A stretch of 64,000 bases of DNA from positions 1 to 64,000 of the forward strand of contig NZ_VCNK01000002.1 in the NCBI RefSeq assembly GCF_006265095.1, written 5' to 3'. The position numbers were made by a program, and so were the translations under genes. Below the pieces are notes generated by a model, which was not told the origin of the DNA, ran no database searches, and was given only the letters and a program-made list of their open reading frames with translations. Shown in pieces: positions 1-60,352 of this stretch (the first letter of the stretch is position 1; the number at the start of each line of letters is the position of its first letter). Source of the stretch: Phaeobacter sp. B1627. GTDB taxonomy: Bacteria > Pseudomonadota > Alphaproteobacteria > Rhodobacterales > Rhodobacteraceae.

Positions 1-71
1 AAGGCGCGGCGCCCGGCCCAACGGGACCCGCTTCTCTGGCATAGCCAGGGCAGCGTGGTCCGGACGGGAGC
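1..71 (+). repeat. Dispersed structured repeat, copy A (left part cut by window edge)
   Basis: This is the right half of a repeat seen at five other loci. The right arm of the long GC stem runs into CCCAAC at 17-22. A small hairpin follows, CTGGC at 36-40 and GCCAG at 44-48 with loop ATA. The tail ACGGGAGC ends at 71. The gap from CCCAAC to the tail is 40 nt, within the 33-40 nt of the other copies. The left arm of the long stem lies outside the window, so its pairing cannot be confirmed here. The remaining sequence up to the first gene shows nothing further that I can assign. Confidence 0.55.
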
Positions 72-269
72 ACACCCGCGCCGCAGGCTATATTCGCGAT
101 CTACCCTCCAGTCAGGCGCGGCTGGATATCTCCGTGTTACTCTCGGTCCCGCTCTGTCCTGATCTTTGATTTTCCCAACACAAATGCTTGCTGACCGGGG
201 GCGGATGGGAGACACTGCACATCGGCTGAAACGCCGCCCCGGAGCGTGGCTGGCGTAGATCATGGATCA

Positions 270-2057
270 ATGGACCGAATGTTTCTCTTTCAATCGGGTG
301 ACACAGCGAGCGCGATTGTCGCGCTGCTGATCGTATGCGCGATGTTTGCAGCATTTCTGCGCGAAACCTATCCGACCGAAGTGGTCGCAATCTGCGGCGT
401 GTCGGTGATGCTGCTGACGGGGGTTCTGCCCTATGATGCGGCGCTTCCGGTCCTCGCAAACCCGGCGCCCTGGACCATTGCCGCGATGTTCCTGATCATG
501 GGGGCGCTGGTGCGCACGGGGGCGTTGGATGCCTTTACCTCTGTGGCGCGCAAACAGGCCGAGGTCAGCCCGAGACTGGCGATCGCGATGCTGATGGGCT
601 TTGTGGTGATCGCGTCGGCCTTCGTGTCCAATACGCCGGTGGTGGTGGTGATGATCCCGGTCTTCATCCAGATCTCCCGCACCCTCAAGCTGGCACCATC
701 CAAGATGCTGATCCCGCTGTCCTATGCGGCGATCCTCGGCGGCACGCTGACCCTGATCGGCACCTCGACCAACCTCCTTGTGGATGGGGTCGCCCGGGCG
801 CAGGGGCTGGTGCCGTTCACCATCTTCGAGGTCACCCCGCTGGGCGTGGTCGTGGTGGCCTGGGGCCTGGTGTACCTGCGCTTCATCGCGCCGCGCCTGT
901 TGCCGGACCGCGACAGCCTGGCGATGATGCTGTCGGATCGCTCCAACATGAAATTCTTCACCGAGGCGGTCATTCCGCCGGACAGCAACCTGATCGGGCG
1001 CGAAGTCACCGGGGTGCAGCTGTTCAAACGCCCCGGTGTGCGGCTGATCGATGTGGTGCGCGGCGATGACTCGTTGCGCCGCAACCTCCAGGGGGTCGAA
1101 CTGCAGGTCGGCGACCGGGTGGTGCTGCGGACCCGGATGACTGAACTCCTCAGCCTGCAGAGCAACAAGGAACTGAAACGTGTCGATCAGGTCTCTGCGG
1201 TGGAAACCAATACCGTCGAAGTGCTGATCACCCCGGGCTGCCGGATGGTCGGCCGCTCGCTTGGCGCCATGCGTCTGCGCCGCCGCTACGGCGTCTATGT
1301 TCTGGCGGTGCATCGCCGCAACCAGAACATCGGGGTGCAACTGGATGATCTGGTGGTGCGCATCGGCGACACGCTGCTGCTTGAAGGGGCGTCGGCCGAT
1401 ATCCAGCGGCTGGCCGCGGATATGGACCTGGCCGATGTCTCGCAGCCCACGCAGCGGGCCTACCGCCGCAGCCACGCGCCGGTTGCGATGGTCGCAATGG
1501 TCGGCATCGTGGTGGGCGCAGCCTTCGGGTTGGCCCCGATCCTGATGCTCTCGATCCTCGCGGTGGCCCTTGTTCTGGTGACCCGCTGCATCGATGCGGA
1601 TGAGGCGTTTTCCTTCATCGACGGGCGATTGCTCGCGCTGATCTTTTCCATGCTGGCGATTGGGGCCGCGTTGGAAAGCTCCGGCGCGGTGGAGCTGATC
1701 GTGCGCGGCATTGCCCCTGTTCTGTCGGATCTGCCGCCGTTCTTCCTGGTCTGGGCGGTTTATCTTCTGACCTCGGTTCTGACCGAACTGGTCTCCAACA
1801 ATGCGGTGGCCGTCGTGGTGACACCGATCGCGGTCGGGCTGGCGCAGGCCATGGGGCTGGATCCGCGCCCGCTGGTGGTGGCGGTGATGGTGGCGGCCTC
1901 GGCGTCCTTTGCCACCCCCATCGGCTATCAGACCAACATGCTGGTCTACGGTCCCGGCGGCTACCGCTTTTCCGACTTCCTGCGCGTCGGCATTCCGCTC
2001 AACCTGTCGATGGGAGTGCTGGCCTCGGCGGTCATTCCGCTGATCTGGCCCCTGTGA
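270..2057 (+). CDS. SLC13-family permease with RCK_C (TrkA-C) domains
   Basis: An inner-membrane carrier of the divalent anion:Na+ symporter type (SLC13/CitM-like); the substrate cannot be read from sequence. Hydrophobic segments flank two re-entrant repeats. The first has SNTP near residue 120 and GTSTN near 165; the second has SNNAV near 505 and YQTNM near 560, followed by the GPGGYRF stretch typical of this family. About 160 soluble residues between the membrane halves resemble two RCK_C modules, which in relatives may bind a regulatory ligand. ATG at 270 or 279 fits the protein better than an in-frame GTG at 246, but no start has a convincing ribosome site. A second member of the family lies at 5.1-6.8 kb. 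Confidence 0.85.
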   Translation: MDRMFLFQSGDTASAIVALLIVCAMFAAFLRETYPTEVVAICGVSVMLLTGVLPYDAALPVLANPAPWTIAAMFLIMGALVRTGALDAFTSVARKQAEVSPRLAIAMLMGFVVIASAFVSNTPVVVVMIPVFIQISRTLKLAPSKMLIPLSYAAILGGTLTLIGTSTNLLVDGVARAQGLVPFTIFEVTPLGVVVVAWGLVYLRFIAPRLLPDRDSLAMMLSDRSNMKFFTEAVIPPDSNLIGREVTGVQLFKRPGVRLIDVVRGDDSLRRNLQGVELQVGDRVVLRTRMTELLSLQSNKELKRVDQVSAVETNTVEVLITPGCRMVGRSLGAMRLRRRYGVYVLAVHRRNQNIGVQLDDLVVRIGDTLLLEGASADIQRLAADMDLADVSQPTQRAYRRSHAPVAMVAMVGIVVGAAFGLAPILMLSILAVALVLVTRCIDADEAFSFIDGRLLALIFSMLAIGAALESSGAVELIVRGIAPVLSDLPPFFLVWAVYLLTSVLTELVSNNAVAVVVTPIAVGLAQAMGLDPRPLVVAVMVAASASFATPIGYQTNMLVYGPGGYRFSDFLRVGIPLNLSMGVLASAVIPLIWPL

Positions 2058-2335
2058 CCCTGTGACCCTGCGCCGAAGCGCTCGGAGAGGCCCGCAGACC
2101 CGCCATATGCGCGTGTTTTCGCCCAGTCTCTCCTGGCGTTCTCAAGCAGGCTTGAACAGGGAGAGATCCGCACCCACCTCTCATATAGCCTGTGTGGAAA
2201 GAGCCTGCCCGAAAGGGTCGGAAACAGGCCTGTCCGATCCTCTGTTCCTCTGTCCGAGGAGCCCCATTCGGGCCTTTCAGGCGGCTGTGGCAGGATGCGC
2301 AACGGAGAGGGCCGCGAAATGGGAGAGAGTGCGAG

Positions 2336-2803
2336 ATGACAACCCGGATCACCTTCATCGCCACGATATTGATCGCGGCCAGCGCGATCGTGTTCAGCGC
2401 AGAAACCTGGGCGACGGAAACTGTGAGGCCGGTCCTGACCGACACGGAGTGGACGCTCGACCAGATCGAGGGCGAGGCGCCGCTTGCAGGGCGCGGCAAT
2501 CTTGAGCTGACATTCGCGCAGGATGGCGTGTTTGCAACCGGCGCGGGCTGCAACAGCTTCAAGGGCACCGCCGAGATCAACGGATCTGAAATTCTCTTTC
2601 CAGACCAGTTGGCCGGAACCATGATGGCCTGCCCGGACGGTCTGGCAGAGCAGGAGGAACAGGTGCTGGCCCTGCTGGCACAGGTGGTTTCCTTTGAGAT
2701 CGACGCCACCGTTCTGGTTCTTCTGGACGAAGACGGCACAGAGCTGCTGCGCTACCGACGCGACGCCGAACCTGACGAAACGCTGGTTGAGACCGGCGGC
2801 TGA
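2336..2803 (+). CDS. META-domain (DUF306/HslJ-like) secreted protein
   Basis: A 155-residue exported protein. Residues 1-27 form a signal peptide ending around ETWATE, and the rest matches the META/HslJ fold: a TEWTLDQI start, a GAGCNSFKG loop at about 70-76 and a later MMACP, giving the paired conserved cysteines at about 72 and 99. HslJ relatives are envelope proteins linked to stress or antibiotic resistance, but their molecular role is poorly defined. ATG at 2336 is chosen because it starts the signal peptide and follows a purine-rich GGGAGAGAG. The upstream reading frame back to 2192 has no such support. The gene stands alone between a permease gene and a convergent flavoprotein gene. 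Confidence 0.8.
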   Translation: MTTRITFIATILIAASAIVFSAETWATETVRPVLTDTEWTLDQIEGEAPLAGRGNLELTFAQDGVFATGAGCNSFKGTAEINGSEILFPDQLAGTMMACPDGLAEQEEQVLALLAQVVSFEIDATVLVLLDEDGTELLRYRRDAEPDETLVETGG

Positions 2804-2946
2804 CCCCCGGCGGCCGCTTCCTGTCGGCAGCCTTCCGCGTGGGGTTTCCCCCGTTTGGCGGCCCCCTGTGACTGCTGCCTGCGGGCGGCGGCCCTTGTCT
2901 GCCGCTCGCAGGGCGGACTGTGGGCCTATATTGTGCGCGCCTTCCG

Positions 2947-4620
2947 TCACGCGATCAGCCCGGAGCGCCCGGCCTGGCGGCCTGAAAACAGGCAGCCTCC
3001 CAGAAATGTCCCCTCCAGCGCATTATAGCCGTGGTAGCCGCCGCCGCCAAACCCGGCCGCCTCGCCGACTGCGAACAGGCCGGGCACTGCCTGACCATCG
3101 GCGCCGATCATCTGACAGTCCAGATTGGTCTGCAGCCCGCCCAATGTCTTGCGGGTCAGGACGCTGAGGCGCACCGCGATCAGAGGGCCGTTGCGGCGGT
3201 CCAGAATGCGATGCGGTTTGGCCGTGCGCAGCAGCCGGTCGCCCCGGTAATTTCGGGCCGCGTGAATGGCCTGGATCTGCCTGTCCTTGGCAAAAGGGTT
3301 GTCCACCTGGGCGTCGCGGGCCTCGATCTGGGCGCGGATCCGGGCCTCATCCAGTGCCACATCGCCGATCTCGTTCATGCCGCGTACCAGCTCTGTCAGG
3401 GTGGTGGCGGTGACGAAATCGGCTCCCCGCGTCTTGAAGGCCTCGACCGGCCCCGGCGCCCGTCCGCGCGCCAGCAGCCGGGCCTTCAGGACCTCGACCC
3501 ATTTGCCCGATGTCATATCCGGGTTCTGCTCCGATCCGGACAGGGCAAACTCCTTTTCAATGATCTTTTGGCTGAGGATGAACCAGCTGTAGTCCTGTCC
3601 GGTGGCGAGAATGGCCTTGAGCGTCCCGAGGGTGTCAAAGCCCGGAAAGGCAGGGTCGGGCAGGCGGGTGCCATGGGCATCAAACCACATCGATGACGGC
3701 CCCGGCAGGATCCGGATGCCGTGGTCCGGCCAGATCGGGTCCCAGTTGCGCAGGCCTTCGCAATAATGCCACATGCGGTCGCCGTTGATGATCCGCCCGC
3801 CTGCGGATTGTGCGATCTTCAGCATGCGGCCATCGACGTGAAAGGGCACGCCGGAGACCATGCGCCCGGGCGCGGGGCCAAGGCGGCCGGTGGGCCAGTT
3901 GGCGCGCACCATCTCCAGGTTGCCGCCGATACCGCCGGAGGCAATCAGCACCGAGGCGGCATAGACCTCGAACTCGCCGACCTCATGGCGGTTGGTACGT
4001 GCTCCGATCGGCGCGGCGTCATGGGCCAGCACCTCGCCCGAGACGCCGGTGGCCTGGCCGCCCTGCTGTATGATGTGGCTCACCTGATGGCGAAACCGGG
4101 CGTCGATGCGGCCCTCGGCCATATGGCTGCGGACGCGGGCGACGAAGGGCGCCAGCACGCCGGGGCCCGTGCCCCAGGTGACGTGGAAGCGGGGCACCGA
4201 GTTGCCATGACCGTCCGCCTCACCGTCGCCGCGTTCCGCCCAGCCCACCACCGGAAACCAGCGCAGACCGAGGTCGCGCAGCCAGGACCGCATGTCGCCT
4301 GAGGCAAAGTCCAGATAGGATTTCGCCCAGAGCCGGGGGAAGTGATCCTCGGGCCGGTCAAACCCGGCGCTGCCGGCCCAGTCTCTCCGGGCCAGTTCGA
4401 GACTGTCGCGGATGCCCATGCGCCGCTGTTCGGGGGTGTCGATCATGAACAGACCGCCGAGGCTCCAATGCGCCTGACCGCCGATGAAATGCGCAGGCTC
4501 CTGCTCCAGCAGGATCACCCGTTTGCCCCGGGTTGCAAGCGCGTCGGCGGCCACCAGACCTGCCAGGCCCGCGCCGATCACGATGACGTCGGCGCTGTTG
4601 TCCGAATGCGCGGTGGTCAT
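2947..4620 (-). CDS. FAD-binding dehydrogenase (fumarate reductase / 3-ketosteroid dehydrogenase-like)
   Basis: A 557-residue flavoprotein of the FAD-binding_2 family. The dinucleotide-binding motif GAGLAGL is at residues 16-22, followed by an acidic strand end (VILLEQE). The C-terminal FAD motif lies in the stretch that includes FAVGEAAGFGGGG and YNALEGTF. Relatives are often annotated as FAD-binding or ketosteroid-type dehydrogenases, but the substrate is not established. A ribosome site (GGGAG) lies just upstream of the ATG. Repeat copy B fills part of the 433-nt gap upstream, and the next gene on the same strand is a permease. Confidence 0.82.
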   Translation of the reverse strand: MTTAHSDNSADVIVIGAGLAGLVAADALATRGKRVILLEQEPAHFIGGQAHWSLGGLFMIDTPEQRRMGIRDSLELARRDWAGSAGFDRPEDHFPRLWAKSYLDFASGDMRSWLRDLGLRWFPVVGWAERGDGEADGHGNSVPRFHVTWGTGPGVLAPFVARVRSHMAEGRIDARFRHQVSHIIQQGGQATGVSGEVLAHDAAPIGARTNRHEVGEFEVYAASVLIASGGIGGNLEMVRANWPTGRLGPAPGRMVSGVPFHVDGRMLKIAQSAGGRIINGDRMWHYCEGLRNWDPIWPDHGIRILPGPSSMWFDAHGTRLPDPAFPGFDTLGTLKAILATGQDYSWFILSQKIIEKEFALSGSEQNPDMTSGKWVEVLKARLLARGRAPGPVEAFKTRGADFVTATTLTELVRGMNEIGDVALDEARIRAQIEARDAQVDNPFAKDRQIQAIHAARNYRGDRLLRTAKPHRILDRRNGPLIAVRLSVLTRKTLGGLQTNLDCQMIGADGQAVPGLFAVGEAAGFGGGGYHGYNALEGTFLGGCLFSGRQAGRSGLIA

Positions 4621-4861
4621 GGCAGCTCTCCCTGTGCTCCGCTCCTCCGGTCCTCAGCCTAGGCGCAATCGCAGGAATGGCGCAATCATTGCGTGTATCA
4701 AGTGCCGCGGCGACAGGCCGTGCGCTGTGCCCTTCGACGTGGGCGCAGGTGTGGAACAGGTTCCGGTGGGTGCTGCCGCCACTGCATTCGTGGCGTCCAG
4801 GTGCGGCAAGGCGCCAGAGCCTGGCCTGTGGTGGTGGCAATGGAGCGGACGGTTCGAGGGA

Positions 4862-4976
4862 TTGCGCTGCGCGATGCGCATCGCGGGGGGGCGGGGGCCG
4901 CGCCTTCGGCGCGGCCCCCGCCCGGCCCAACGCTTTTGAGGGAGGCTTTGCCTCATCCGGAAAGGGGCGGGAGAGC
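4862..4976 (+). repeat. Dispersed structured repeat, copy B
   Basis: A perfect 14-bp stem, GCGGGGGCCGCGCC at 4891-4904 and its complement at 4908-4921, closes on TTC and can form a C(UUCG)G tetraloop. CCCAAC follows at 4926-4931, then a small hairpin GAGGC-TTT-GCCTC, then the tail GGCGGGAG from 4966. The outer flank TTGCGCTGCGC at 4862-4872 and the stem sequence are nearly identical to copy F at 60.3 kb, which lies in the opposite direction. The element sits 3' of the permease gene at 5054-6832 and 5' of the flavoprotein gene. Just beyond it, 4980-5020 holds a short imperfect duplication containing CGTCACCAGGCCAA. Confidence 0.75.
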
Positions 4977-5053
4977 CACCGTCAACGTCACCAGGCCAAC
5001 GACGTCACCAGGCCAATGACCGGCCCCGGTTCACCTCGGGAGCGGTGCGGAGG

Positions 5054-6832
5054 TCAGAGTGGCCAGAAGATCAGGATGGCAGGTATCGAGACCGCGATGA
5101 CCAGGATTTCCAGCGGCAGCCCCATGCGCCAGTAGTCGCCAAAGCGATAGCCTCCGGGGCCGAGCACCAGCGTATTGTTCTTATGGCCGATGGGGGTCAG
5201 AAAAGCCGCCGAGGCCGCCACCGCCACCGCCATCAGGAAAGGGTCGGGCGAGACACCCAGCGTATTGGCCATCGAGATCCCGACCGGGGCAGCCACAATC
5301 GCCGTCGCCGTATTGTTGAGCACATCCGACAGCGTCATGGTCACCACCATCAGGACCGTCAGGATCGCCCAGGCCGGCAGCCCGTTGGTCAGATCAACCA
5401 GCGACTGGGCCAGAAGCTCGGTGCCTCCCGAGGTCTCCAGCGCCTGCCCCAGCGGGATCATTGACCCCAACAGCACCACCACCGGCCATTCCACGTGATC
5501 GTAGAGTTCCGCCACCGGCAGGATCTTCAGCACGACATAGCCCACAACCACGATCCCCAAGGCGATCGGCAGGTACACCAACCCCACCGATGCGGTCAGA
5601 ACCGCCGCCGCAAAGAGGCCGATCGCCCACCAGGTCTTGTCATTTGCGGTGACCGACAGGCCGCGCGCCGCCAGGGGCAGGCACCCGAGCCAATCCGCAA
5701 CCTCGCCGCCCTGATCGCGGGGGCAGAGGAGCAGCAGGATGTCGCCCGGTACCACTTCGGTCTGGCGGATATGGCTGGTCAGCCGCTGCCCCTGGCGGGC
5801 AATGCCGAGCAAGACCGACCCCTTGCGCCAGGCCAGGCCGATGGCCTGGGCGCTGCGGCCTGCAATGCGGGCGTAATCGGTGACCACCACCTCGATCACT
5901 TCGAGCCCGTCGCCGGCCGCCTTCAGCTTTTCCTCGCGCGCGGCATCGGAAAAATCGAGCTTCAGCGTCGAGCGGAACTCGTCCAGCGCCTCGGGGGTGG
6001 CTTCCAGTACGATGGTATCTCCGGCCTGCAACAACGCGCCGCTGGCCCGGCCGTAGCGCCGCTGGCCGCCCCGGATCAGCCCCAGGATGACCACGTCCGC
6101 TTTCTCGGCTTCCTTGTCGAGACTGCCGAGCCTCTGCTCGACCAGCTCCGATCCCTCCGGCACTGTGAGCTCGGCAATATAGGGGGCCAGCTGGCTGTCA
6201 GAGGCGCCCGCACCACCGGTGGAGCGGTCAGGGATCAGCCGCCAACCCACCAGGGCCACAAAGGCCAGCCCCGCCGCCGCCGCCGCCAGCCCCACCGGAG
6301 CAAAGTCGAACATCTGAAACGGTTCACCCAGCGTGTCGTGGCGGATGGAGGCGATGATGATATTCGGAGGCGTCCCGATCAGGGTCGCCATACCGCCGAG
6401 GATGGTGGCAAAGGACAGCGGCATCAGGCTCTGACCCGGCGCGCGCCCCGCCTTTCGTGCGGTCTGGATGTCCACCGGCATCAGCAGCGCCAGTGCCGCC
6501 ACGTTGTTCATAAAGGCCGACAGCACCGCACCGACACTGCCCATCAGCGCGATATGCGCCCCGAGACTGCGGCTCTGATCGACCAATGTTCGGGTGATCA
6601 GATGCACGGCCCCCGATTTGACCAGCCCGGCCGAGACGATCAGAACCAGCGCCACCACCAGCGTCGCCGGATGACCAAACCCCGCAAAGGCGTCCTTGGT
6701 CTCGACCAGCCCCAGCAACACCGCCACCATCAGCGCGGCAAAGGCCACCAGATCATAGCGGAACCGTCCCCACAGCAAGAGACCGAAAACGCAGGCGAAA
6801 AGGCTGAAGAGCAGAGTCTGATCCAATGTCAT
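5054..6832 (-). CDS. SLC13-family permease with RCK_C domains (second copy)
   Basis: A 592-residue inner-membrane carrier of the same family as the first gene of the window but clearly diverged. Key loops are FMNNVAAL near residue 115 and GTPPN near 155 in the first half, and LNNTATAIV near 515 and GHKNNTLVLGPGGYRF near 555 in the second. Between the halves are about 180 soluble residues with two RCK_C-like modules. In this family such proteins carry sulfate, dicarboxylates or similar anions; the substrate is not known here. ATG at 6832 begins a typical hydrophobic N-terminus. Downstream on the same strand is an FAD dehydrogenase gene, separated by repeat copy B. Confidence 0.85.
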   Translation of the reverse strand: MTLDQTLLFSLFACVFGLLLWGRFRYDLVAFAALMVAVLLGLVETKDAFAGFGHPATLVVALVLIVSAGLVKSGAVHLITRTLVDQSRSLGAHIALMGSVGAVLSAFMNNVAALALLMPVDIQTARKAGRAPGQSLMPLSFATILGGMATLIGTPPNIIIASIRHDTLGEPFQMFDFAPVGLAAAAAGLAFVALVGWRLIPDRSTGGAGASDSQLAPYIAELTVPEGSELVEQRLGSLDKEAEKADVVILGLIRGGQRRYGRASGALLQAGDTIVLEATPEALDEFRSTLKLDFSDAAREEKLKAAGDGLEVIEVVVTDYARIAGRSAQAIGLAWRKGSVLLGIARQGQRLTSHIRQTEVVPGDILLLLCPRDQGGEVADWLGCLPLAARGLSVTANDKTWWAIGLFAAAVLTASVGLVYLPIALGIVVVGYVVLKILPVAELYDHVEWPVVVLLGSMIPLGQALETSGGTELLAQSLVDLTNGLPAWAILTVLMVVTMTLSDVLNNTATAIVAAPVGISMANTLGVSPDPFLMAVAVAASAAFLTPIGHKNNTLVLGPGGYRFGDYWRMGLPLEILVIAVSIPAILIFWPL

Positions 6833-20679: not shown

Positions 20680-20768
20680 GCTCCCGCCTGCGGCCCCTGC
20701 TTTGAAAAAGCCGGGACAGCAGTTGGGCATGGCGCGGCGCGCGCCCCGTCAGGGGCGCGCGCCGCGCC
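20680..20768 (-). repeat. Dispersed structured repeat, copy C
   Basis: On the minus strand a perfect 17-bp stem (arms 20731-20747 and 20752-20768, loop GTCA) is followed by CCCAAC (complement at 20722-20727), a small hairpin GCTTT-GAA-AAAGC in plus-strand terms at 20699-20711, and the tail GGCGGGAGC (complement at 20680-20688). Just outside, TTCGGGC-TTT-GCCCGAA near 20775 is another hairpin. It lies in the 540-nt gap between pccR and the exporter gene and downstream of the latter. Apart from the PccR sites, nothing else is evident in that gap. Confidence 0.75.
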
Positions 20769-21017
20769 GGTCGTTTCGGGCTTTGCCCGAAGCGAAACAC
20801 CTCAATCAACGGGACTGAAAGTCCAAAAGCCGTCCTGCATCCTCTGGCCACCTATTGGACCATCTCCCCAACAGATGGCTTGGGCGCGGCCCGGATATGA
20901 CGCCTGGACATGAGGTCCGGCGATCAAGCCTGACCCTGAGGTTGACGGGAGGGCCGGATGGGTGGCCCGCAGAGGCCCGGCGGCCGACTGTTTGCTATCA
21001 GATCAGGCCGCTTGCCA

Positions 21018-33915: not shown

Positions 33916-34088
33916 GCTCCCGCGCCGCCGCGTGGCCTGACTGTGTCAGACCCCTTTGGCGGCTTGGGCATGGCAGTCGGCCCCAAAGGGGCCGACTGCG
34001 CGCCGCGCGCGCCCCATCCGGGGCGCGCGCGGCGCCACCCCCAACCGGTTCGGTTGCGCCAGGGGCGCAGCCAGAGACGGGCGGGAGC
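33916..34088. repeat. Dispersed structured repeat, copy D (double, mirror-image)
   Basis: The left unit, read on the minus strand, has tail GCTCCCGC at 33916-33923, a small hairpin CTGAC-TGT-GTCAG at 33937-33949, TTGGG at 33964-33968, and a perfect 12-bp stem (arms 33973-33984 and 33988-33999). The right unit, read on the plus strand, has a perfect 16-bp stem (arms 34000-34015 and 34020-34035, loop ATCC), CCCAAC at 34040-34045, a hairpin TGCGCC-AGG-GGCGCA, and tail GGCGGGAGC at 34080-34088. The two tails are complementary. It fills most of the 334-nt gap after the mutase gene; no other element is evident there. Confidence 0.78.
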
Positions 34089-37691: not shown

Positions 37692-37795
37692 CCAGCGGGC
37701 GCACGAGGGTGCACTGGATCGCACTGGCCGCATCGGGGGAAGCAGGTGGTGCTCTGCGTCAGCAGAGGGCAGCCGCGCGGGGGGGGAGGGGCGGC

Positions 37796-47014: not shown

Positions 47015-47172
47015 GCTCCCGCCGGTCCTGCGGGCACAGGGTGCCCTTGTCCCGTTGGGCCTTGCGGGTTGGGGGTGGCGCCGGGCCAGAGGCCCGGCGC
47101 CACCCCCAACGCCTTTTCGGCGTTTTGCCTTTGGCAAAACACCAAAAGGGGGCGGGAGCGCCCCGCTCCCGC
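47015..47172. repeat. Dispersed structured repeat, copy E (double, mirror-image)
   Basis: The left tail GCTCCCGCC at 47015-47023 and right tail GGCGGGAGC at 47151-47159 are complementary. Between them are a small hairpin GGGCAC-AGG-GTGCCC at 47032-47046, a perfect 20-bp stem (arms 47068-47087 and 47091-47110, loop AGA) that itself includes CCCAAC and its complement, and a second small hairpin GTTTTGCC-TTT-GGCAAAAC at 47122-47140. A further GCTCCCGC at 47165-47172 can pair with the right tail instead. It begins 27 nt after the proS stop codon. The remaining gap to 47437 contains loose TTTGGGCAGACG-type repeats and no gene. Confidence 0.8.
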
Positions 47173-52597: not shown

Positions 52598-52732
52598 GAT
52601 GTGTTCCTTCGTCTGTCGTTGTTGTCTGATGCTTGGAAAACACCGGCAGAGCCCGGATTATTCGGGGGGATGCGCATTTTTTTCGAGGGGGGAGATTTTT
52701 TTCGAGGACGCGTCCAGCCTGCGGGGTGCCCC

Positions 52733-54691
52733 TCAGACGTCCAGCTCTTCGACGAATTTGGCGTTTTCCTGGATGTATTGGTAGCGCAGCTCGGGTTTCT
52801 TGCCCATCAGACGCTCGACCAGATCGCCGGTTTCGCCGGGCTCGTCCTCGTCGATGGTGACGCGGATCAGCTTGCGGGTCTTGGGATCCATGGTGGTCTC
52901 CTTGAGATCCTTGGCGTCCATCTCGCCCAGACCCTTGAAGCGGGAGACGTCGATCTTGCCTTTGCCGCCCAGCCCCTTCTCCAGCCATTTGTCGCGCTCT
53001 GCCTCGTCGAGGCAATAGACTCGGCGCGCGCCCTGGGTCAGGCGGAACAGCGGCGGACAGGCGAGGTAGAGGTGTCCACCGTCGATCAGCGGCCGCATCT
53101 GGGTGAAGAAGAAAGTCATCAGCAAGGAGGCGATATGGGCGCCGTCCACATCCGCATCGGTCATGATGATGATCTTGTCATAGCGCAGATCGTCGAGGTT
53201 GAAGCGGGTGCCGAGACCGACGCCGAGCGCCTCGCAGAGGTCGCGGATCTCGGCGTTGGAGGAGAGCTTGCCGGAAGCGGCGCCGAGCACGTTCAGGATC
53301 TTGCCCTTGAGCGGCAGCAGCGCCTGATATTCCCGGTGCCGCGCGCCCTTGCCGGAGCCGCCGGCGCTGTCGCCCTCGACGATGAACAGCTCGGTGCCGG
53401 AGCGGTCCTTGGAGGAACAGTCGGTGAGCTTGCCGGGCAGGCGCAGTTTCTTGGTGGCGGATTTGCGCTGGGTCTCTTTTTCCTGTTTGCGGCGCAGCCG
53501 TTCCTCGGAGCGCAGGATCAGGAAATCGAGGATGGCGCCGGCGGATTTGGTATCGGCCGCCAGCCAGTTGTCGAAATGGTCACGGACCGAGTTCTCGACC
53601 ATGCGCGCGGCGCTTTCGGTGGACAGGCGGTCCTTGGTCTGTCCAACAAAGGCCGGGTCGGCGATGAAGCAGGACACCAGCCCGCAGCCCCCCGCCATCA
53701 GGTCGTCGCGGGTGATCTGGGCGGCCTTCTTGTTGCCGACCAGCTCGCCATAGGCCTTGATCCCCTTGAGTATGGCGGCCCAGAATCCCGCCACATGGGT
53801 GCCGCCCTCAGGCGTGGGGACGGTGTTGCAGTAGCTCTGGGTGAAGCCGTCGCGCGAGGGGGTCCAGTTGATCGCCCATTCCACATAGCCGGGTTCGCCG
53901 AATTTCTCGCGGAACTCCACTTTGCCGGCAAAGGGCGCATCGGCATAGGTGGTGGATTTGCCCAGCACCTCGGTCAGGTAGTCCTTGAGGCCGCCGGGGA
54001 AATGGAAGGTCGCCTCGGTCGGGGTCTCGCCGTCATCGATGGCGCTCTTCCAGCGGATCTCGACGCCGGAGAACAGATAGGCCTTGGAGCGGGCGAGGGT
54101 GAAGAGGCGTTTGGGTTTGAACCGATGCGAGCCGAAGATCTGCTCGTCGGCGTGAAAGGTGACGAAAGTGCCGCGCTTGTTGGGGGCGGCGCCGATTTTT
54201 TCGACCGGACCAAGGGGGATGCCGCGCGAAAACCGTTGTTCGAACAGTTCCTTGTTCTTGGCCACCTGCACCACCAGACTGTCCGAGAGCGCGTTGACCA
54301 CCGAGGAGCCCACACCGTGCAGACCGCCGGAGGTCTGATAGGCCTTGCCGGAGAATTTGCCGCCCGCGTGCAGAGTGCAGAGGATCACCTCCAGCGCGGA
54401 TTTGTCGGGGAACTTCGGGTGCGGATCGATCGGGATGCCGCGGCCGTTGTCGGTGATGGTCACCGAGTAGTCGGCGTTCAGGGTGATTTCGATCCGGTTG
54501 GCGTGGCCCGCGACGGCCTCGTCCATGGAGTTGTCGAGGATCTCGGCCACCATATGGTGCAGGGCGCGCTCGTCGGTGCCGCCGATATACATGCCGGGAC
54601 GTTGGCGCACCGGTTCCAGCCCTTCGAGCACCTCGATGGAGGAAGCGTCATAGGTTTCGGACGTGTTGGGGCTGAGAAGATCGTCGGCCAT
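52733..54691 (-). CDS. parE: DNA topoisomerase IV, B subunit
   Basis: A 652-residue ATPase subunit that powers chromosome decatenation. The GHKL ATPase covers residues about 1-220 (RPGMYIGGTDERALHHMV near 31-48, and DNGRGIP near 83). The transducer follows to about 400, and the toprim region begins at EGDSAGGSGKGARHREYQALL near 421 with LLPLKGKILNV. The length and this block separate ParE from GyrB. Its partner ParC is not encoded in the window. A perfect palindrome GGACGCGTCC at about 52705 and two TTTTTTTCGAGG runs lie just after the stop codon. Confidence 0.95.
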   Translation of the reverse strand: MADDLLSPNTSETYDASSIEVLEGLEPVRQRPGMYIGGTDERALHHMVAEILDNSMDEAVAGHANRIEITLNADYSVTITDNGRGIPIDPHPKFPDKSALEVILCTLHAGGKFSGKAYQTSGGLHGVGSSVVNALSDSLVVQVAKNKELFEQRFSRGIPLGPVEKIGAAPNKRGTFVTFHADEQIFGSHRFKPKRLFTLARSKAYLFSGVEIRWKSAIDDGETPTEATFHFPGGLKDYLTEVLGKSTTYADAPFAGKVEFREKFGEPGYVEWAINWTPSRDGFTQSYCNTVPTPEGGTHVAGFWAAILKGIKAYGELVGNKKAAQITRDDLMAGGCGLVSCFIADPAFVGQTKDRLSTESAARMVENSVRDHFDNWLAADTKSAGAILDFLILRSEERLRRKQEKETQRKSATKKLRLPGKLTDCSSKDRSGTELFIVEGDSAGGSGKGARHREYQALLPLKGKILNVLGAASGKLSSNAEIRDLCEALGVGLGTRFNLDDLRYDKIIIMTDADVDGAHIASLLMTFFFTQMRPLIDGGHLYLACPPLFRLTQGARRVYCLDEAERDKWLEKGLGGKGKIDVSRFKGLGEMDAKDLKETTMDPKTRKLIRVTIDEDEPGETGDLVERLMGKKPELRYQYIQENAKFVEELDV

Positions 54692-54984
54692 GTGTCGCGC
54701 TGCTCATTGTTGCTATTGGTTGGGCCCATTATGGCGCATGTCGCAGGGCGGGGGAAGGGGCGCAGTGCGCGGAGCCGGGAGGGGGCCGGGGAGGGCGTTC
54801 TTTGCGGTAACGGGGCGTGGGTGTTGCGGCAGAGCCGCAGGCGCTCCGTTAATATGACAATCCGCGTGATATATTCACCTTCCCAGGCGCATCCGGCTTG
54901 CATAATATAGTCCACAGCCTACCTTCTGGCGATGTTTTGTACGAGTGGGCCAATATCAGGCCAGTGTTTGGTAAGAGGTAATTG

Positions 54985-55593
54985 ATGCCGTGGATCGAGG
55001 TGATTCCGTTTCGGAACGCGACGGGGAAGCTGCGCGAACTTTATGAACGGATGACGGGGCCGGATGGCCAGGTGGACAACATCATGCAGCTGCATTCCCT
55101 GCGGCCGCATTCGATGGAAGGCCATATGGCGCTGTACAAGAACGTTCTGCATCACACCAGCAACGAGCGGCCCAAGTGGTTTCTGGAGCTGCTGGGGGTC
55201 TGGGTTTCGGCGCTGAACGATTGTGAGTATTGCAGGCTTCATCACGAGGCCGGGCTGAAGCGGCTGATGTATGACGAGGAGCGCGTCGCCGCCATGTTGG
55301 CGGCGGTTGAAGCGCGCGACGTTGCCGCCATGCCGGTCCGGCAGGCCGAACGGGCGGCGCTGCGATATGCGCGCAAGCTGACAGAGCAACCGGCGGAGTT
55401 GACATCGCAGGACGTCTGGCCGCTGCGCGACGCCGGGCTGAGCGATGGCGAGATCCTCGAGATCAATCAGGTGGTGGCCTATTTCGCCTATGCCAACCGG
55501 ACGGTTTTGGGGCTTGGCTGCTCGACCAAGGGCGATGTGCTGGGGCTCAGCCCTGGCAATCTCGACGATCCGCAGGACTGGAGCCACCGCTGA
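54985..55593 (+). CDS. Peroxidase-related (AhpD/CMD-like) enzyme
   Basis: A 202-residue protein of the carboxymuconolactone decarboxylase/AhpD type. The active-site cluster is NDCEYCRLHH with Cys80, Cys83 and His87, as in AhpD peroxidatic enzymes, and the C-terminal NQVVAYFAYANRTVLGLGC stretch marks the peroxidase-related subgroup. It may reduce peroxides; direct substrate evidence is absent. AGAGG lies six bases before ATG 54985, which is preferred to TTG 54982. It is divergent from parE across an AT-rich promoter region. Confidence 0.85.
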   Translation: MPWIEVIPFRNATGKLRELYERMTGPDGQVDNIMQLHSLRPHSMEGHMALYKNVLHHTSNERPKWFLELLGVWVSALNDCEYCRLHHEAGLKRLMYDEERVAAMLAAVEARDVAAMPVRQAERAALRYARKLTEQPAELTSQDVWPLRDAGLSDGEILEINQVVAYFAYANRTVLGLGCSTKGDVLGLSPGNLDDPQDWSHR

Positions 55594-55834
55594 ATCTGTG
55601 AGGTGAACCCGACAGATGAACCCGAGAGGGCGGCGGGGCATCGGGGCGGCAGAGCCAGTGTCAGCCAGCCCGTGGTAGCCGAACGGGTGATCGCCGTGAT
55701 GGTCGGTGGTGATGGCGTCGGGGGCGGTTATCTGGCGGGTCATGCTGGCAGGGATCGGCGTCAGGGTGCCGGTGGCAATGCGCGGCGATATGCAGGCTTG
55801 AGAGGAGGCTGCGGGCGCTGTAGGAGTCGGAGCC

Positions 55835-56497
55835 ATGATGAGACCTGTATTTCTCGGCCTGTGGCTGCTGTTGCCTGCTCCGCTCGCGGCGCATCCCCAT
55901 ATCTTTGTCGATACGGGGCTGGCGCTGGAGGTGGATGACGCGGGCATTCTGCGCGCGGTGGAGGTCACCTGGGCCTATGACGATTTCTATTCGCTGCTGA
56001 TCTTCGAGGATCTGGCGCTGGATGGGGATCTTGACGGTCAGCTGACGCCGCAGGAGCTGCAGACGCTGCAGGGGTTCGATCTGAACTGGTCGCCGGGGTT
56101 TGCGGGTGACCTATATGTGACCACCGGCCCCGACGCACCGGGACAGGAACAGGAACAGGCGCAGGTGCTGGGCGCGCCGCAGCATCTGAGCACCGAAGTG
56201 GCGAATGGTGTCATCACCACCCGGCATCGGCGCGAAGTGACCGCGCCGGTGCCGGTAGAGGCCGCCGGGGTGACGCTACGGGCCTATGATCCCACCTATT
56301 ACACCGCCTATGAAATCAGCCGCGGGGTGCGCGTGAGCGGCCCCTGCACCGCCACGGTGACAGCGCCGGATCTGGACCGGGCCTATACGCTGGTCGAAGA
56401 GCTGCTCTATGCGATGCCGGCCGATCAGGCCGAAGATGCCTATCCGGAGGTGGGCCGCGCCTTTGCCACCACCGTGATGCTGGACTGCGACGCCTGA
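55835..56497 (+). CDS. DUF1007-family periplasmic protein
   Basis: A 220-residue exported protein. After a short signal peptide ending at PLAAHP, it has the [15 protein letters not shown] start of DUF1007 proteins and then [13 protein letters not shown], an EF-hand-like acidic stretch. DUF1007 members often sit beside NicO-type metal transporter genes, and here that gene begins one base after this stop codon. A metal-binding or delivery role is inferred from context. AGGAG lies before the ATG. Confidence 0.85.
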
Positions 56498-56498
56498 G

Positions 56499-57698
56499 AT
56501 GGCGCGGCCTGTCCTGACCGCGCTGAGCCTGCTGATGCTGGTGGCCGTGGGCGCGGTGGCGCTCTGGCTCTGGGGATTTGGTGGTGCGGACCATCTGTTG
56601 CGGGCGGCGGCGGAGGCGCAACGGGAGGCGCAGAACGCCATGGCGCGGGGCTTGCGGGCGCTGAAGGCCGGGGCCCCCGGCGCCTGGTGGAGCCTGATGG
56701 GTGTCTGTTTCGCCTACGGGTTCTTTCACGCGGCGGGGCCGGGTCACGGCAAGATGGTCATCGGCGGCTACGGCCTGGGCCGGTCGGTGCCGCTGTGGCG
56801 TCTGTCGGGGCTGGCGGTGGCCTCATCCCTGGCGCAGGCCGCAACGGCGGTCCTCCTGGTGCTGGCGGGGGTATGGCTGTTTGATTGGGGGCGCGTGCGG
56901 CTGACCGATACCGCTGAACGCCTGCTGGCACCGGTCTCCTACGGGTTGATGGCGCTGCTGGGGCTCTATCTGATGCTGCGGGGGCTGCGGCGGTTCTTCC
57001 GGCTCTGGCGCCAGACGGCGGTGCTGCCATTCGGCGGTGTAGGGGACGGCGGTCACGGTGGTCATCACGGGCACCAGGGGCATCACGGGCATCAGGCTGA
57101 GCACGCTCATGTTGGCCACAGTACAGGCCACAGCCACGCTGAACACAGCCACTCAGGCCACAGTCATTCAGGCCACAGTCATACAGAGCACAGTCATACA
57201 GATCCCCTGCACTCCGGCGCGGCGGGGGAGGTCTGCGCCAGTTGCGGCCATCGCCACGGCCCCACCCCGGAGGAGGCCGAAGGGCTGAGCTCCCTGCGCG
57301 AAGCGCTGGCGATTGTGCTGGCCATTGCGGCGCGTCCCTGCACCGGCGCGGTGTTCCTGCTGTTGCTGACCTGGCGGCTGGGGGTTCTGGGGGCAGGGGT
57401 TGCGGGGACCTTTGTGATGGGGCTCGGTACCGCCAGTGTCACGCTTGTGGTGGCATTGGTCGCCGCCGGGGTGCGCAACGGGCTGCTGGCGCGCGGCCGG
57501 GGGCAGGGAGCCGCAACAGGGTCAGGCACAGGGTTAGCAGCGTCAGGCCCAGCGTCAGGTACAGCGTCAGGCACGGGGCCAGACATGGGGCCAGATACGG
57601 CGGCAGGCGGCGGTGCCCGTCTGGCGGCGGTACTCGAGGTCTGTGCGGGCGGGCTCGTCCTGATCTTCTGTCTGCAACTTCTGCTGCGCAGTCTTTGA
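56499..57698 (+). CDS. NicO-family nickel/cobalt transporter with His-rich loop
   Basis: A 399-residue inner-membrane transporter. Family features are [13 protein letters not shown] at 77-89 with metal-site residues, and [17 protein letters not shown] near 285. The loop at about 186-239 is dominated by His ([12 protein letters not shown], then [18 protein letters not shown]), which fits Ni2+ or Co2+ binding, and CASCGHRHG follows. Near residues 335-365 is a Gly/Ala/Thr/Ser-rich linker encoded by DNA repeats at 57500-57600. Direction of transport, import or export, cannot be set from sequence; similar proteins do either. Confidence 0.9.
57058..57210. repeat. Coding short tandem repeats for His-rich loop
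   Basis: The DNA of the His-rich loop is made of short direct repeats, with units of the kind CACAGTCATTCAGGC and GGGCATCACGGGCA recurring with changes. The lengths are multiples of three, so copy-number changes would keep the reading frame of the transporter. Confidence 0.75.
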
Positions 57699-57935
57699 GG
57701 GGCTGGCTGGCTGCCATCTGGCTGCCAACTGGTGGCGGTTTGGCGGCATACAGGCTGCAGACAGGCGCGCCCATATGCCCCGACTGTCGCGACGGGGTAA
57801 ACTCCGCAGCGCGCAGTCCGCACATATGAAACGATTCACTTGTGCTGAAACCTTGTGCAATTGTATCGGTACGCAAAGCTGACTTGTCGCCACCTCCACC
57901 GCGGCCTAAGGGCTTTTGGACAAGGAGACCGTGCA

Positions 57936-59345
57936 ATGGTGACCCCCGGATCAACCCAAATGAGCTATGGCGGCCATGTGCGTGCCCTGTCCGTTCTCGG
58001 CCTGCCGCTGATCGGCGGCCATCTGGCGCAATTCGCGATCGGCATGACCGATACGGTGATGCTCGGCTGGTACGGGATTGGCGAGCTGGCGGCGGTGACG
58101 CTGGGGCAGTCGTTCTTTTTCGTCTGGTTCATTCTGGGGGCCGGCTTTGCCTTTGCGGTCATGCCGGTGGTGGCGTCGGCGGCGGCGACGGGGGATCATC
58201 GCCGGATCAGGCGGGCCACCCGGATGGGGCTGTGGCTTTCGCTGCTCTACGGGCTGATCGCCATGCCGATGATGTGGTATTCCGAATCCATCCTGCTGGC
58301 CGCCGGACAGGAGGCCCAGGTGGCGGCCGATGCGGGGGCCTATCTGCGGATTGCGGGCTGGGGGATTTTCCCGGCGCTGCTGGTGATGGTGCTGAAATCC
58401 TACCTGGCCGGGCTGGAGCGCACACAGGCCGTTCTGTGGATCACGGTGGTTGCAACGCTGGTCAATGCAGTGGCCAACTACGCGTTGATCTTCGGCAATT
58501 TCGGCGCCCCCGAGATGGGACTGCGGGGGGCTGCGCTGGCGTCTCTGGCGACCCAGGCGGTGTCCGTTCTGGCGGTGATCGCCTATAGTCTTTGGCGCCT
58601 GCCGGAGCATGATCTGCTGCGCAACCTGCACCATCCGGATTGGGAAATGCTGCGCGAGATCTTTCGTCATGGTCTGCCGATCGGCCTGACCACCCTGTGC
58701 GAGGTCAGCCTGTTCACCGCGTCATCGCTGATGATGGGGTGGTTGGGCACGGTGGCGCTGGCGGCGCATGGCATCGCGATGACGGTGGCGGGGCTGACGT
58801 TCATGATGCATCTGGGATTGTCGAATGCGGCCACGATCCGGGTCGGCACCGCGCTGGGCCGTGGCGACAAGGACCATATGGTGCGCGGCGCGGTGGTGGT
58901 CACGGTGGCCTCCTTGGTGATCGCGGTGGCAACGGCGCTGGTGTTTTTCCTGACGCCAGAGCCGTTGGTTCTCATGTTCCTCGACCCGGATGACCCGCAA
59001 AAGCAGGATATCCTGGCGATCGGTATTTCGCTGCTGGCGATGGCGGGGCTATTCCAGTTGATGGATGGCATGCAGGCGATTGCGCTGGGGCTGCTGCGCG
59101 GGTTGCTCGACACGGGCGTTCCGATGGTGATGGCGGCGCTCAGCTATTGGGTGGTGGGGGTGCCGACCTCCTATATTCTGGGGTTCCGGTTCGGCATGGG
59201 CGGCGTCGGTGTCTGGACCGGGTTGATCCTCGGGCTCAGCACCGCGGGTGCTTTGCTGCTGGTCCGGTTCTGGCTGCATGCGCTGGGGCGGGCGGAGTTG
59301 CCGGTTGCGGCGGGCGTCGCCGGGGATGCGGATCCCGCCATCTGA
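57936..59345 (+). CDS. MATE-family exporter
   Basis: A 469-residue inner-membrane protein with about 12 hydrophobic segments in two similar halves. The N-terminal VLGLPLIGGHLAQFAIGMTDTVMLG and the second-half HGIAMTVAGLTFMMHLGLSNAATIRVG match the MATE superfamily, which expels drugs or organic cations using Na+ or H+. ATG at 57936 is chosen because AAGGAG lies eight bases before it; an upstream start at 57855 lacks such a site. It is alone on its transcript as far as can be seen. Confidence 0.92.
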   Translation: MVTPGSTQMSYGGHVRALSVLGLPLIGGHLAQFAIGMTDTVMLGWYGIGELAAVTLGQSFFFVWFILGAGFAFAVMPVVASAAATGDHRRIRRATRMGLWLSLLYGLIAMPMMWYSESILLAAGQEAQVAADAGAYLRIAGWGIFPALLVMVLKSYLAGLERTQAVLWITVVATLVNAVANYALIFGNFGAPEMGLRGAALASLATQAVSVLAVIAYSLWRLPEHDLLRNLHHPDWEMLREIFRHGLPIGLTTLCEVSLFTASSLMMGWLGTVALAAHGIAMTVAGLTFMMHLGLSNAATIRVGTALGRGDKDHMVRGAVVVTVASLVIAVATALVFFLTPEPLVLMFLDPDDPQKQDILAIGISLLAMAGLFQLMDGMQAIALGLLRGLLDTGVPMVMAALSYWVVGVPTSYILGFRFGMGGVGVWTGLILGLSTAGALLLVRFWLHALGRAELPVAAGVAGDADPAI

Positions 59346-59592
59346 TGCGGCCGGGATGCGGACTGGATGGATACTGGATGCGGTTGCTGAGGCGGGTGGT
59401 CCGCGTCTGAGAGGGCGGGCACGCCTGAGTGGGCAGGCGCGCGCCGGGGCGCGCGGGGACCGGTGGCGGATTGGAACGGGCTGGCGGGAGCAGGCTGGAT
59501 TTCCGGCGCGACTGCGCGGCGGCACTGCGATCTGTACTTCGATCCGACCTGTGATCCCACATGTGACCCGACCTGCAACCCGGACTTCGCCG

Positions 59593-59638
59593 GATTGAGT
59601 GTGGCAGCTGCCGGAGATTGAGTGTGGCAGCTGCCGGA
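59593..59638. repeat. 23-bp perfect direct duplication with palindrome
   Basis: A 23-bp unit is repeated exactly, at 59593-59615 and 59616-59638. Each unit contains GGCAGCTGCC, a perfect palindrome. It lies just beyond the stop codon of the minus-strand gene at 59650-60054 in a 304-nt gap after the MATE gene. The rest of that gap holds GCGCGCCGGGGCGCGC (59438-59453) and loose repeats, but no gene. Confidence 0.85.
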
Positions 59639-59649
59639 TCGGGGTGGGA

Positions 59650-60054
59650 TCAGTTGCCCTTGGTCAGCCGGTCGGCCTTTTTGCGCACCAGCACATTGCG
59701 CAGATCATGCATCGCCAGCAGCAGCGCGTCGGTCACATCGTCGAGTTGTGCGTCCGTGGCGCGGGACTGGGCCCATTGCGCGGTGAGGTTCAGGTGATCC
59801 ACCGTGCGCAGGATGTCGTCGACCTCCCGGCGGGACAGGAGGCCTGTTCGCTCCGCCATCCAGCGGTCAATGGCTGCCCGGTCCTCTGGGCTCAGCACCC
59901 GGTCACCGTGAGGCTTGATCTCACCTTTGCGGAGATTCACGACCGCAATCTGGTCCATCTCGATCCGACGGTTGCGGTTTTCGCTGTCGATCCGGAATAC
60001 CAGCGCGCCGTTTTCGCGGATGCGGAAGTAGTAGTCTGGCAGGGCGGGTGTCAT
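59650..60054 (-). CDS. Small protein of unknown function
   Basis: A 134-residue soluble protein. The start MTPALPDYYFRIRENGALVFRID and the middle EMDQIAVVNLRKGEIKPHGDR suggest a small beta domain; the C-terminal half is helical with DILRTVDHLNLTAQWAQS and KKADRL at the end. I do not recognise a family. ATG at 60054 gives a compact protein; an upstream frame extends 54 codons but is compositionally poor. It stands alone beyond repeat copy F. Confidence 0.68.
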   Translation of the reverse strand: MTPALPDYYFRIRENGALVFRIDSENRNRRIEMDQIAVVNLRKGEIKPHGDRVLSPEDRAAIDRWMAERTGLLSRREVDDILRTVDHLNLTAQWAQSRATDAQLDDVTDALLLAMHDLRNVLVRKKADRLTKGN

Positions 60055-60233
60055 GAAAATCCTATTCAGATCAGCTCTTTGCTGGGGTCTTGGTGTGCGC
60101 AGGGGCACTGTCAGGGTAGCAGGCTGTGGCCAGGTGGCAAGCATATTGCATGCTGGCGCACGGGCCGCGTCAGACCCGAGAGCCATCGGCGGTGCGGTCG
60201 TGATGGGTATCGTCACGGCACCGTTGCGGTGGT

Positions 60234-60352
60234 GCTCCCGCCCATGTGCACCGCCCGCCTGCGGCGCGCATCACACATTGGTTGGGCCGGGCGGGGGCCG
60301 CGCCTGAAAGGCGCGGCCCCCGCCCCCGCGCGATGCGCGTAGCGCAGCGCAA
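60234..60352 (-). repeat. Dispersed structured repeat, copy F
   Basis: On the minus strand a perfect 16-bp stem (arms 60310-60325 and 60289-60304, five-base loop) is followed by CCCAAC (complement at 60281-60286), a small hairpin CGCC-TGC-GGCG at 60256-60266, and the tail GGCGGGAGC (complement at 60234-60242). The outer flank at 60342-60352 and the stem match copy B almost exactly in reverse. It lies in the 410-nt gap downstream of the aspartate aminotransferase gene and upstream of the 134-residue gene; nothing else is evident there besides CCCCTGTG repeats near 60390. Confidence 0.78.

What the first reader, a model, noticed from the sequence alone, without database searches (positions are those of the whole stretch)
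1..60352. A family of dispersed structured repeats with a fixed design but varied stems
Seen directly: loci at 1-71, 4891-4976, 20680-20768, 33916-34088, 47015-47159 and 60234-60325 give eight units of one layout. Each has a long GC-rich perfect stem (12-20 bp where both arms are visible), then CCCAAC (a close form in one unit), then a small hairpin of 4-8 bp with exactly three loop bases, then GGCGGGAGC or a close form. The distance from CCCAAC to the tail is 33-40 nt in most units. The stems and small hairpins differ in sequence, yet stay self-complementary, which points to selection on structure. Five loci lie downstream of a stop codon. I do not recognise this element from memory. Possible roles are transcript-end protection, a substrate for a mobile-element-like transposase, a nucleoid site or an RNA-binding target.
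Basis: partly seen in the sequence, partly recalled or inferred. Interest (0 to 1): 0.87.

Follow-up and report, generated by a model that had tools for sequence, protein, structure and literature searches.

The report
Roseobacter hairpin repeats at gene ends
Some marine Roseobacter-group bacteria carry dozens of copies of a small two-hairpin sequence just after the ends of genes; its stems change quickly yet stay paired, apparently as RNA of the strand opposite the gene it sits beside, and it fits none of the known families we checked.

Summary
The eight window units belong to a family with 52 exact-pattern copies in the genome (reversed-pattern control: 1) and 77 model hits. It occurs in 18 of 18 genomes of the genus (one matches Epibacterium ulvae U95) and in 36 of 248 genera of the family. 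Layout, read away from the stop codon it follows: GCTCCCGCC, hairpin 1 (hypervariable), GTTGGG, a few bases, hairpin 2 (near-perfect GC stem). Covariation far exceeds shuffles. Copies sit at orthologous sites, cluster between convergent genes and avoid divergent ones. Wobble pairs in hairpin 1 fall mainly on the strand antisense to the hugged gene (54 loci against 5; same trend in a second genus). Hairpin 2 has no strand bias, but mirrored arm changes and loop flips, as template switching would give. RAYT-type transposase is absent from 16 of 18 carriers; nothing in Rfam passed its cut-off; neither side has a U-tract. Best mechanism, inferred: an RNA stop or 3'-end structure acting on transcripts about to enter the hugged gene antisense. 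A new variant of the REP-like kind; function untested.

The parts
1..71 (-). unit (far half of a dyad that continues on contig C1): GCTCCCGTC end at 71, hairpin 1, GTTGGG, part of hairpin 2 cut by the contig end
4895..4974 (-). unit with long hairpin 2 (subfamily b); it begins 79 nt after the stop of the minus-strand CitMHS transporter gene (5054)
20680..20767 (+). unit with hairpin 2 of 17 bp; copies at the orthologous place in G295, G299, G292 (hairpin 2 lost), G294, G300
20769..20803 (+). hairpin 3 (GGTCGTTTCGGGC-TTT-GCCCGAAGCG) with AAACACCTC, a third stem shared by one subfamily and by the orthologues
33916..33968 (+). degenerate left half of a dyad (GCTCCCGCG ... CTTGGG), 48 nt after the stop of the methylmalonyl-CoA mutase gene (33867)
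34000..34088 (-). right half of the dyad, with hairpin 2 of 16 bp
37746..37792 (.). worn remnant of a right half; an intact dyad stands at this place in G296 (L235 18826-18958). Right end approximate
47015..47100 (+). left half of a full dyad, 26 nt after the stop of proS (46988)
47078..47159 (-). right half of the same dyad, sharing hairpin 2
60234..60319 (+). unit with long hairpin 2 (subfamily b)

Best explanation
A largely vertically inherited, clade-specific family of REP-like palindromic elements that works as a strand-specific RNA structure at gene 3' ends. Each unit hugs the stop codon of one gene. The functional RNA is read towards that gene, i.e. antisense to it: hairpin 2, CCCAAC, hairpin 1, GGCGGGAGC, then a C-rich run, and after that it would enter the hugged gene from behind. 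Proposed mechanism: polymerase coming from the convergent neighbour, or stray antisense transcription in tandem contexts, makes this RNA. The structure, directly or through a protein or Rho, ends or trims the transcript there, so the hugged gene is shielded from antisense transcription and the neighbour's mRNA gets a stable 3' end. Dyads do this for both directions with one shared stem. Shown: family, structure, covariation, strand asymmetry, position, orthologous places. Inferred: transcription in that direction, any termination or trimming, and the benefit.
For: Copies and layout. Covariation on 131 distinct units: 515 doubly changed cells against 143 +/- 10 in shuffles, score 0.416 against 0.095 +/- 0.006, 0 of 500 shuffles reach any of the five measures; slid structures score at most 0.068. 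Strand polarity, with a stem finder that treats G.T and A.C alike: among 193 unique hairpin-1 sequences, within 7 bp of the loop, 61 A.C against 3 G.T in gene orientation (p 5e-15), i.e. G.U on the other strand, while the composition of the flanks predicts slightly more G.T (0.084 against 0.068); per locus group 54 against 5, 42 tied or without either, of 101 (p 2e-11; groups not joined by flank matches may still be related); between orthologues 27 against 3; in a second genus (G504) 22 against 6 (p 0.004). Position: 22 of 49 in convergent spacers against 11% of spacer bases, 1 of 49 divergent against 27% (3 of 52 not classed); single units in the genus: 67 convergent, 14 tandem behind the hugged gene, 5 tandem the other way, 3 divergent, of 89. 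C at 74, 61, 71, 87 and 73% in positions 2-6 after GGCGGGAGC (198 units). 42 orthologue clusters.
Against: No transcript data. With a relaxed detector the hugged gene rarely has a U-tract terminator within 120 nt (2 of 29) while the gene on the other side more often does (9 of 28, p 0.02), which fits the element serving the hugged gene's own transcript; a stricter detector over a longer stretch shows no such contrast (4 of 29, 5 of 26, controls 9 of 67). Single units in tandem contexts mostly follow the hugged gene (22 against 7 in two genera, p 0.008; three of the 7 are one orthologous locus), where no neighbour mRNA would supply the antisense RNA; with dyads and long units included this genome splits 13 to 13. 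No U-tract on either side, so termination would need an unknown factor. The invariant pair inside the motif (G7 with U, 131 of 131) is a wobble in gene orientation and a mismatch in the other. In the alignment fitted to the model in gene orientation the asymmetry nearly vanishes (60 A.C, 52 G.T); that fit favours G.T. Greedy clustering at 70% similarity weakens it (28 against 11, p 0.009). At proS, G293 and G302 show a terminator and then an element. The gene caller is home-made.
Confidence: 0.4

Rival explanations
1. The element is the hugged gene's own 3'-UTR: a U-less terminator or exonuclease barrier read in gene orientation (GCTCCCGCC, hairpin 1, GTTGGG, hairpin 2).
For: Tie to the stop codon of the hugged gene (median 38 nt); polarity 22 against 7 among single units in tandem contexts; a U-tract terminator was found for 2 of 29 hugged genes by one detector and 4 of 29 by another. 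At proS, of the ten loci printed in the right orientation, G000 and G296 have the element straight after the stop and eight show, by eye, a terminator-like hairpin with a T-rich tail, two of these followed by an element; the eight minus-strand loci were not read there.
Against: Wobble tolerance lies mainly on the opposite strand; hairpin 1 was strictly more stable in gene orientation in only 17 of 131. Control gene ends also lack U-tract terminators (59 of 67). The loss at proS may be a deletion: in G299 the dyad stands next to the downstream gene, about 2.5 kb from proS.
Confidence: 0.25
2. A miniature mobile element (REP, MITE or REPIN-like) mobilised by an unknown transposase; 3' ends are merely safe landing sites.
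For: Subfamilies at separate loci: six loci share hairpin 3 GGTCGCTTCGGGC and six share the hairpin-2 arm GCGGGGGCCGCGCC, plus the unit at 4895; patchy spread over genera, 36 of 248; at preA some relatives lack the element; dyads resemble the dimers of known REPs (PMC3733652).
Against: RAYT-type Y1_Tnp absent in 16 of 18 genus genomes that all carry the element; 42 orthologue clusters point to vertical inheritance; the one presence/absence case examined base by base is a deletion with a remnant, not an insertion; no replication-strand bias on the G295 chromosome (19 leading, 13 lagging, of 32; p 0.38).
Confidence: 0.2
3. A DNA-level site (gyrase, nucleoid protein or cruciform) at convergent 3' ends; RNA is irrelevant.
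For: Enrichment between convergent genes; near-perfect palindromic stem 2 with no strand bias.
Against: Strand-biased wobble in hairpin 1 (54 against 5 locus groups) is not expected of duplex DNA or a symmetric cruciform.
Confidence: 0.1
4. The strand asymmetry is mutational: transcription-associated C-to-T and A-to-G change on one strand, not selection for G.U pairs.
For: A.C pairs arise by G-to-A or T-to-C on the gene strand, as transcription in the opposite direction would give (reasoning, not tested).
Against: Hairpin 2 of the same elements shows no such bias (15 G.T, 13 A.C pooled; p 1e-9 against the hairpin-1 share). It would still imply transcription in the same direction.
Confidence: 0.05

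Closest known systems
CGTC-tagged REP superfamily, mostly of alpha-Proteobacteria (Di Nocera et al. 2013, PMC3733652; abstract, passages and sections 6 and 15 read)
   Same: Short dispersed palindromes, dimers frequent, no dedicated transposase, lie 3' of genes and between convergent or tandem genes, suspected RNA function. CGTC is the commonest tetranucleotide after the first motif here (71 of 199 units).
   Different: Those are one 8-9 bp stem with a terminal unpaired CGTC tag, A/T at the first stem pairs, 4-5 nt loop and short tail. Here there are two hairpins, near-invariant GCTCCCG and TTGGG, a hypervariable hairpin 1, and CGTC lies inside. Its main text does not contain the words Roseobacter, Rhodobacter, Ruegeria or Phaeobacter.
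GTAG REP / REPIN with RAYT transposase
   Same: Dispersed extragenic palindromes in opposite pairs.
   Different: No GTAG in the invariant parts; no Y1_Tnp in 16 of 18 carriers.
Intrinsic terminators, including U-less or tandem-hairpin forms (recalled)
   Same: GC-rich hairpins just after stop codons, shared between convergent genes.
   Different: No U-tract on either side; invariant sequence blocks; terminator-like hairpins coexist at some loci.
Integron attC sites (recalled: RYYYAAC ... GTTRRRY around a variable stem)
   Same: GTTGGGC and GCCCAAC fit the two boxes; variable folded stem; strand-specific structure.
   Different: The boxes do not stand in the right order in one site; dispersed copies in both orientations at gene ends, no cassette array looked for or seen.
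Rfam SorX / SorY sRNAs of Rhodobacter
   Same: Weak matches at L034 (E 0.008 and 0.04).
   Different: 26.5 and 27.7 bits against gathering scores 46.6 and 111; seen in 1 of 4 loci scanned.

Membership tests
GTAG REP with RAYT | RAYT (Y1_Tnp) transposase in the carrier | tested here: not met
   PF01797 in 2 of 18 genus genomes; elements in 18 of 18. This genome has one, a 134-aa frame.
GTAG REP with RAYT | terminal unpaired GTAG tag | tested here: not met
   Invariant blocks of the 38-unit alignment are GCTCCCGCC and GTTGGG; no GTAG.
CGTC REP | single 8-9 bp stem with CGTC at one end and a short tail | tested here: not met
   Two-hairpin layout with inner CGTC in 71 of 199; a CGTC-REP core recalled from memory, CGTCATTCCCG, is not enriched in the window (27 against 32 expected).
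CGTC REP | 3' of genes, convergent or tandem, no dedicated transposase | tested here: met
   for position; for transposases only Y1_Tnp was searched.
Intrinsic terminator | GC hairpin followed by a U-tract | tested here: not met
   Within 30 nt after GGCGGGAGC, 13 of 198 units reach 5 or 6 T in six bases; in gene orientation 23 of 196 do somewhere in bases 20-105 after GTTGGG.
Integron attC | RYYYAAC ... GTTRRRY on one strand around the stem | tested here: not met
   Units read GCCCAAC ... GGCGGGAGC, dyads GTTGGGC ... GCCCAAC. Definition recalled.
Any Rfam 15 family | score above the gathering cut-off | tested here: not met
   0 matches in the window; 3 weak ones in 4 further loci, all below cut-off.
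Structured RNA | covariation and strand-biased G.U | tested here: met
   weaker.
Structured RNA | expressed transcript | not testable with these tools
   No expression data held.

The most novel reading that the evidence does not exclude
A genome-wide, strand-selective antisense barrier: a dedicated RNA structure placed about 40 nt behind stop codons that acts only on transcripts entering the gene backwards, probably with a clade-specific RNA-binding or termination factor, without a U-tract.
Probability: 0.3. Interest if true: 0.85.

Novelty: new variant of a known kind. Interest (0 to 1): 0.62.

Why it matters
It adds a structurally distinct repeat family to a well-studied marine group and shows a method: wobble polarity can tell which strand of a palindromic repeat is used as RNA. 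If the antisense-barrier reading holds, it would be a compact, U-less way to insulate convergent genes, and a screen for its factor becomes possible by comparing carrier and non-carrier genera. It also offers many natural cases that look like template switching keeping stems perfect.

Tried and rejected
RAYT-driven REP: rejected in its classical form. U-tract terminator: two simple detectors found few in elements and controls alike, so they neither support nor exclude a terminator role. Lagging-strand single-stranded DNA: no replichore bias on the G295 chromosome (19 against 13, the 32 of 38 hits that lie on C3); the replichores come from GC skew of 24 sampled stretches. Integron attC: wrong box order. 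DNA-uptake-like 9-mer: not enriched by itself. Rfam: nothing above cut-off. Class-wide exact pattern: outside this genome at most 3 matches per genome, 36 genomes with any, of 288. The remaining hits were not read. Literature: all ten searches (listings) showed no description; passages were read in PMC2864571 and PMC8632094, which name other Rhodobacterales motifs. Most subscription papers are not held, so 'not in print' means these searches only.

Limits: context counts use a home-made codon-usage gene caller (coding fraction 0.76-0.81). One search used 161 of 199 units with enough flank and dropped 15 of these as far from genes; its class 'single' includes some hairpin-3 units. One search classed 30 of 53 G504 units, from 40 stretches around part of the 93 hits. 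Orthologue clusters need a flank match on one side only, and clusters were compared member by member in list order. The family scan scored 19 candidates per genome, so its counts are lower bounds. One search searched hairpin 2 only at offsets 3-5; the unrestricted count is. Units for searches were kept only if a perfect 6-bp arm followed GTTGGG, which biases hairpin 2 towards perfection there; one search did not ask for this.
Full report
What is there. Turned to run away from the stop codon it hugs, each unit is GCTCCCGCC, a variable hairpin (hairpin 1), GTTGGG, a few bases, and a GC-rich hairpin (hairpin 2). The exact two-part pattern occurs 52 times in the 4.35-Mb genome against 1 for the reversed pattern. 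All 52 were printed and folded. A covariance model built from 38 units gives 77 hits at E <= 1 in this genome; two of them are the same dyad half seen at abutting contig ends (C1 end, C48 start; the window's first 71 bases are found again in L007). In 131 distinct units the hairpin-2 stem starts 0-5 nt after GTTGGG in 124 and has no non-Watson-Crick pair in 114.

Forms. Compact single units have a short hairpin 2; long units have arms up to 18 bp and often a third hairpin (six loci with GGTCGCTTCGGGC). Dyads are two units back to back sharing hairpin 2, as at 47015-47159.

Who has it. 18 of 18 genomes of the genus carry it (9-89 hits at E <= 0.01, the 9 in a 67%-complete genome). Across the family, 36 of 248 genomes, one per genus, have hits at E <= 0.001 (19 candidates scored per genome); in the order sample 34 of 195, 17 of 87 genera, all carriers in the same family. 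A complete genome of another genus, G504, has 93 hits at E <= 0.05. Named records with the layout include Leisingera, Phaeobacter, Ruegeria and Tropicibacter; whether they fall in the same unnamed genus was not tested.

Structure is conserved, sequence is not. On 131 distinct units, 93.7% of cells pair; 515 doubly changed cells against 143 +/- 10 in shuffles; covariation score 0.416 against 0.095 +/- 0.006; 0 of 500 shuffles reach any of the five measures. The alignment was fitted to the model, which leans towards it, but structures slid by 1-3 columns score 0.026-0.068. Flank matching groups part of the 199 units found in the fetched stretches into 42 orthologue clusters. In 97 comparisons between orthologues hairpin 1 keeps 536 matched pairs and has 154 doubly changed pairs that still match, 59 one-sided changes, 36 doubly changed broken ones and 22 unchanged mismatches; hairpin 2 has 893, 84, 12, 0 and 2. 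Downstream of preA, G000 and G299 carry different hairpin-1 sequences in the same frame.

Which strand. A change in one arm gives either G.T or A.C, and which of these is tolerated shows which strand folds as RNA. With a stem finder that treats both alike, in gene orientation and within 7 bp of the hairpin-1 loop, A.C is seen 61 times and G.T 3 times in 193 unique sequences. By locus group 54 lean to A.C, 5 to G.T, 42 neither, of 101. In orthologue comparisons the one-sided changes are 27 A.C against 3 G.T. In G504, 22 against 6. On the other strand these are G.U pairs, so the structure that is kept looks like that of the strand antisense to the hugged gene. Weaker or contrary views: clustering the first 131 units at 70% similarity leaves 28 against 11; the alignment fitted in gene orientation has 60 A.C and 52 G.T; the invariant G.U pair of the motif is in gene orientation. 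Hairpin 2 shows no bias (15 G.T, 13 A.C pooled).

Hairpin 2 and template switching. Its arms change together, differ in length between orthologues in 41 of 97 comparisons as the stem finder draws them, and loops flip to their reverse complement beside unchanged inner arms in 6 pairs, which are not independent. Arm homogenisation and spacer inversion are the stated marks of template switching (PMC8604942, start of abstract), and template switching has been proposed to maintain RNA hairpins (PMC8794818, same listing). So perfect complementarity of hairpin 2 is weak evidence for selection. Palindrome loss is also seen: G292 lost hairpin 2 at the 20680 locus, and this genome keeps only a remnant of a dyad that is intact in G296.

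Where. In this genome 22 of 49 classed units lie between convergent genes (11% of spacer bases expected), 26 between tandem genes (13 each way) and 1 between divergent ones (27% expected); 3 of 52 could not be classed. In the genus, 89 single units: 67 convergent, 14 tandem behind the hugged gene, 5 the other way, 3 divergent; 50 dyad units: 17, 13, 14 and 6; 7 with hairpin 3: 0, 3, 3 and 1. Stop to unit: median 38 nt for single units with a same-strand gene upstream (n = 81). After GGCGGGAGC, read the other way, positions 2-6 are C in 61-87%. Neither side shows a general T-tract. Neighbouring genes tested in the window are ordinary: proS, methylmalonyl-CoA mutase, a CitMHS transporter, a ScfR-type regulator, MFS and MATE transporters among them.

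Mechanism. Polarity of the fold (antisense), place (behind the stop codon) and preference for convergent pairs suggest a structure that acts on RNA about to enter a gene backwards. That it ends or trims transcripts is inference. Against it, one detector finds a U-tract terminator for 2 of 29 hugged genes but 9 of 28 opposite genes (p 0.02), as if the element served the hugged gene's own transcript; another detector shows no contrast. I rate the antisense-side role 0.4, the gene's own 3' UTR 0.25, a mobile element 0.2.

Against known families. RAYT-type Y1_Tnp is missing in 16 of 18 carriers. The CGTC REPs share position, dimers and lack of a transposase but not the layout (PMC3733652). Rfam gives nothing above cut-off. 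I file it as a new variant of REP-like repeats, not as a member of either described superfamily.

Noticed in passing
L235 (G296:C25) about 1100-1500: Where this genome has the 20680 element, the closest relative G296 has a transposase-like frame that reads like an IS110-family enzyme (recalled, not searched); the contig starts near there. IS110 types are known to target palindromes (recalled).
   Followed up: no
window 1 and contig C48 / C1 ends: Contigs C1 (end) and C48 (both ends) break at or beside these elements, so short-read assemblies of carriers may fragment at them and undercount dyads.
   Followed up: partly
window 37746-37792 against L235 18826-18958: Remnant half-element after loss of hairpin 2 and the left half between two close species.
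   Followed up: yes
L224 (G293, after preA): A terminator-like hairpin (GCCGCGCATTTTGCGCGGC + GCTTTTTG) closely resembles hairpin 2 of the element at the same place in G000; hairpin 2 may have come from terminators.
   Followed up: no
all units, read hairpin 2 first: GGG of GGCGGGAGC could pair either with CCC of CCCAAC or with the following C-run, two exclusive states (by inspection).
   Followed up: no
L034 2001-2071: Sub-threshold Rfam matches to SorX and SorY sRNAs of Rhodobacter.
   Followed up: no
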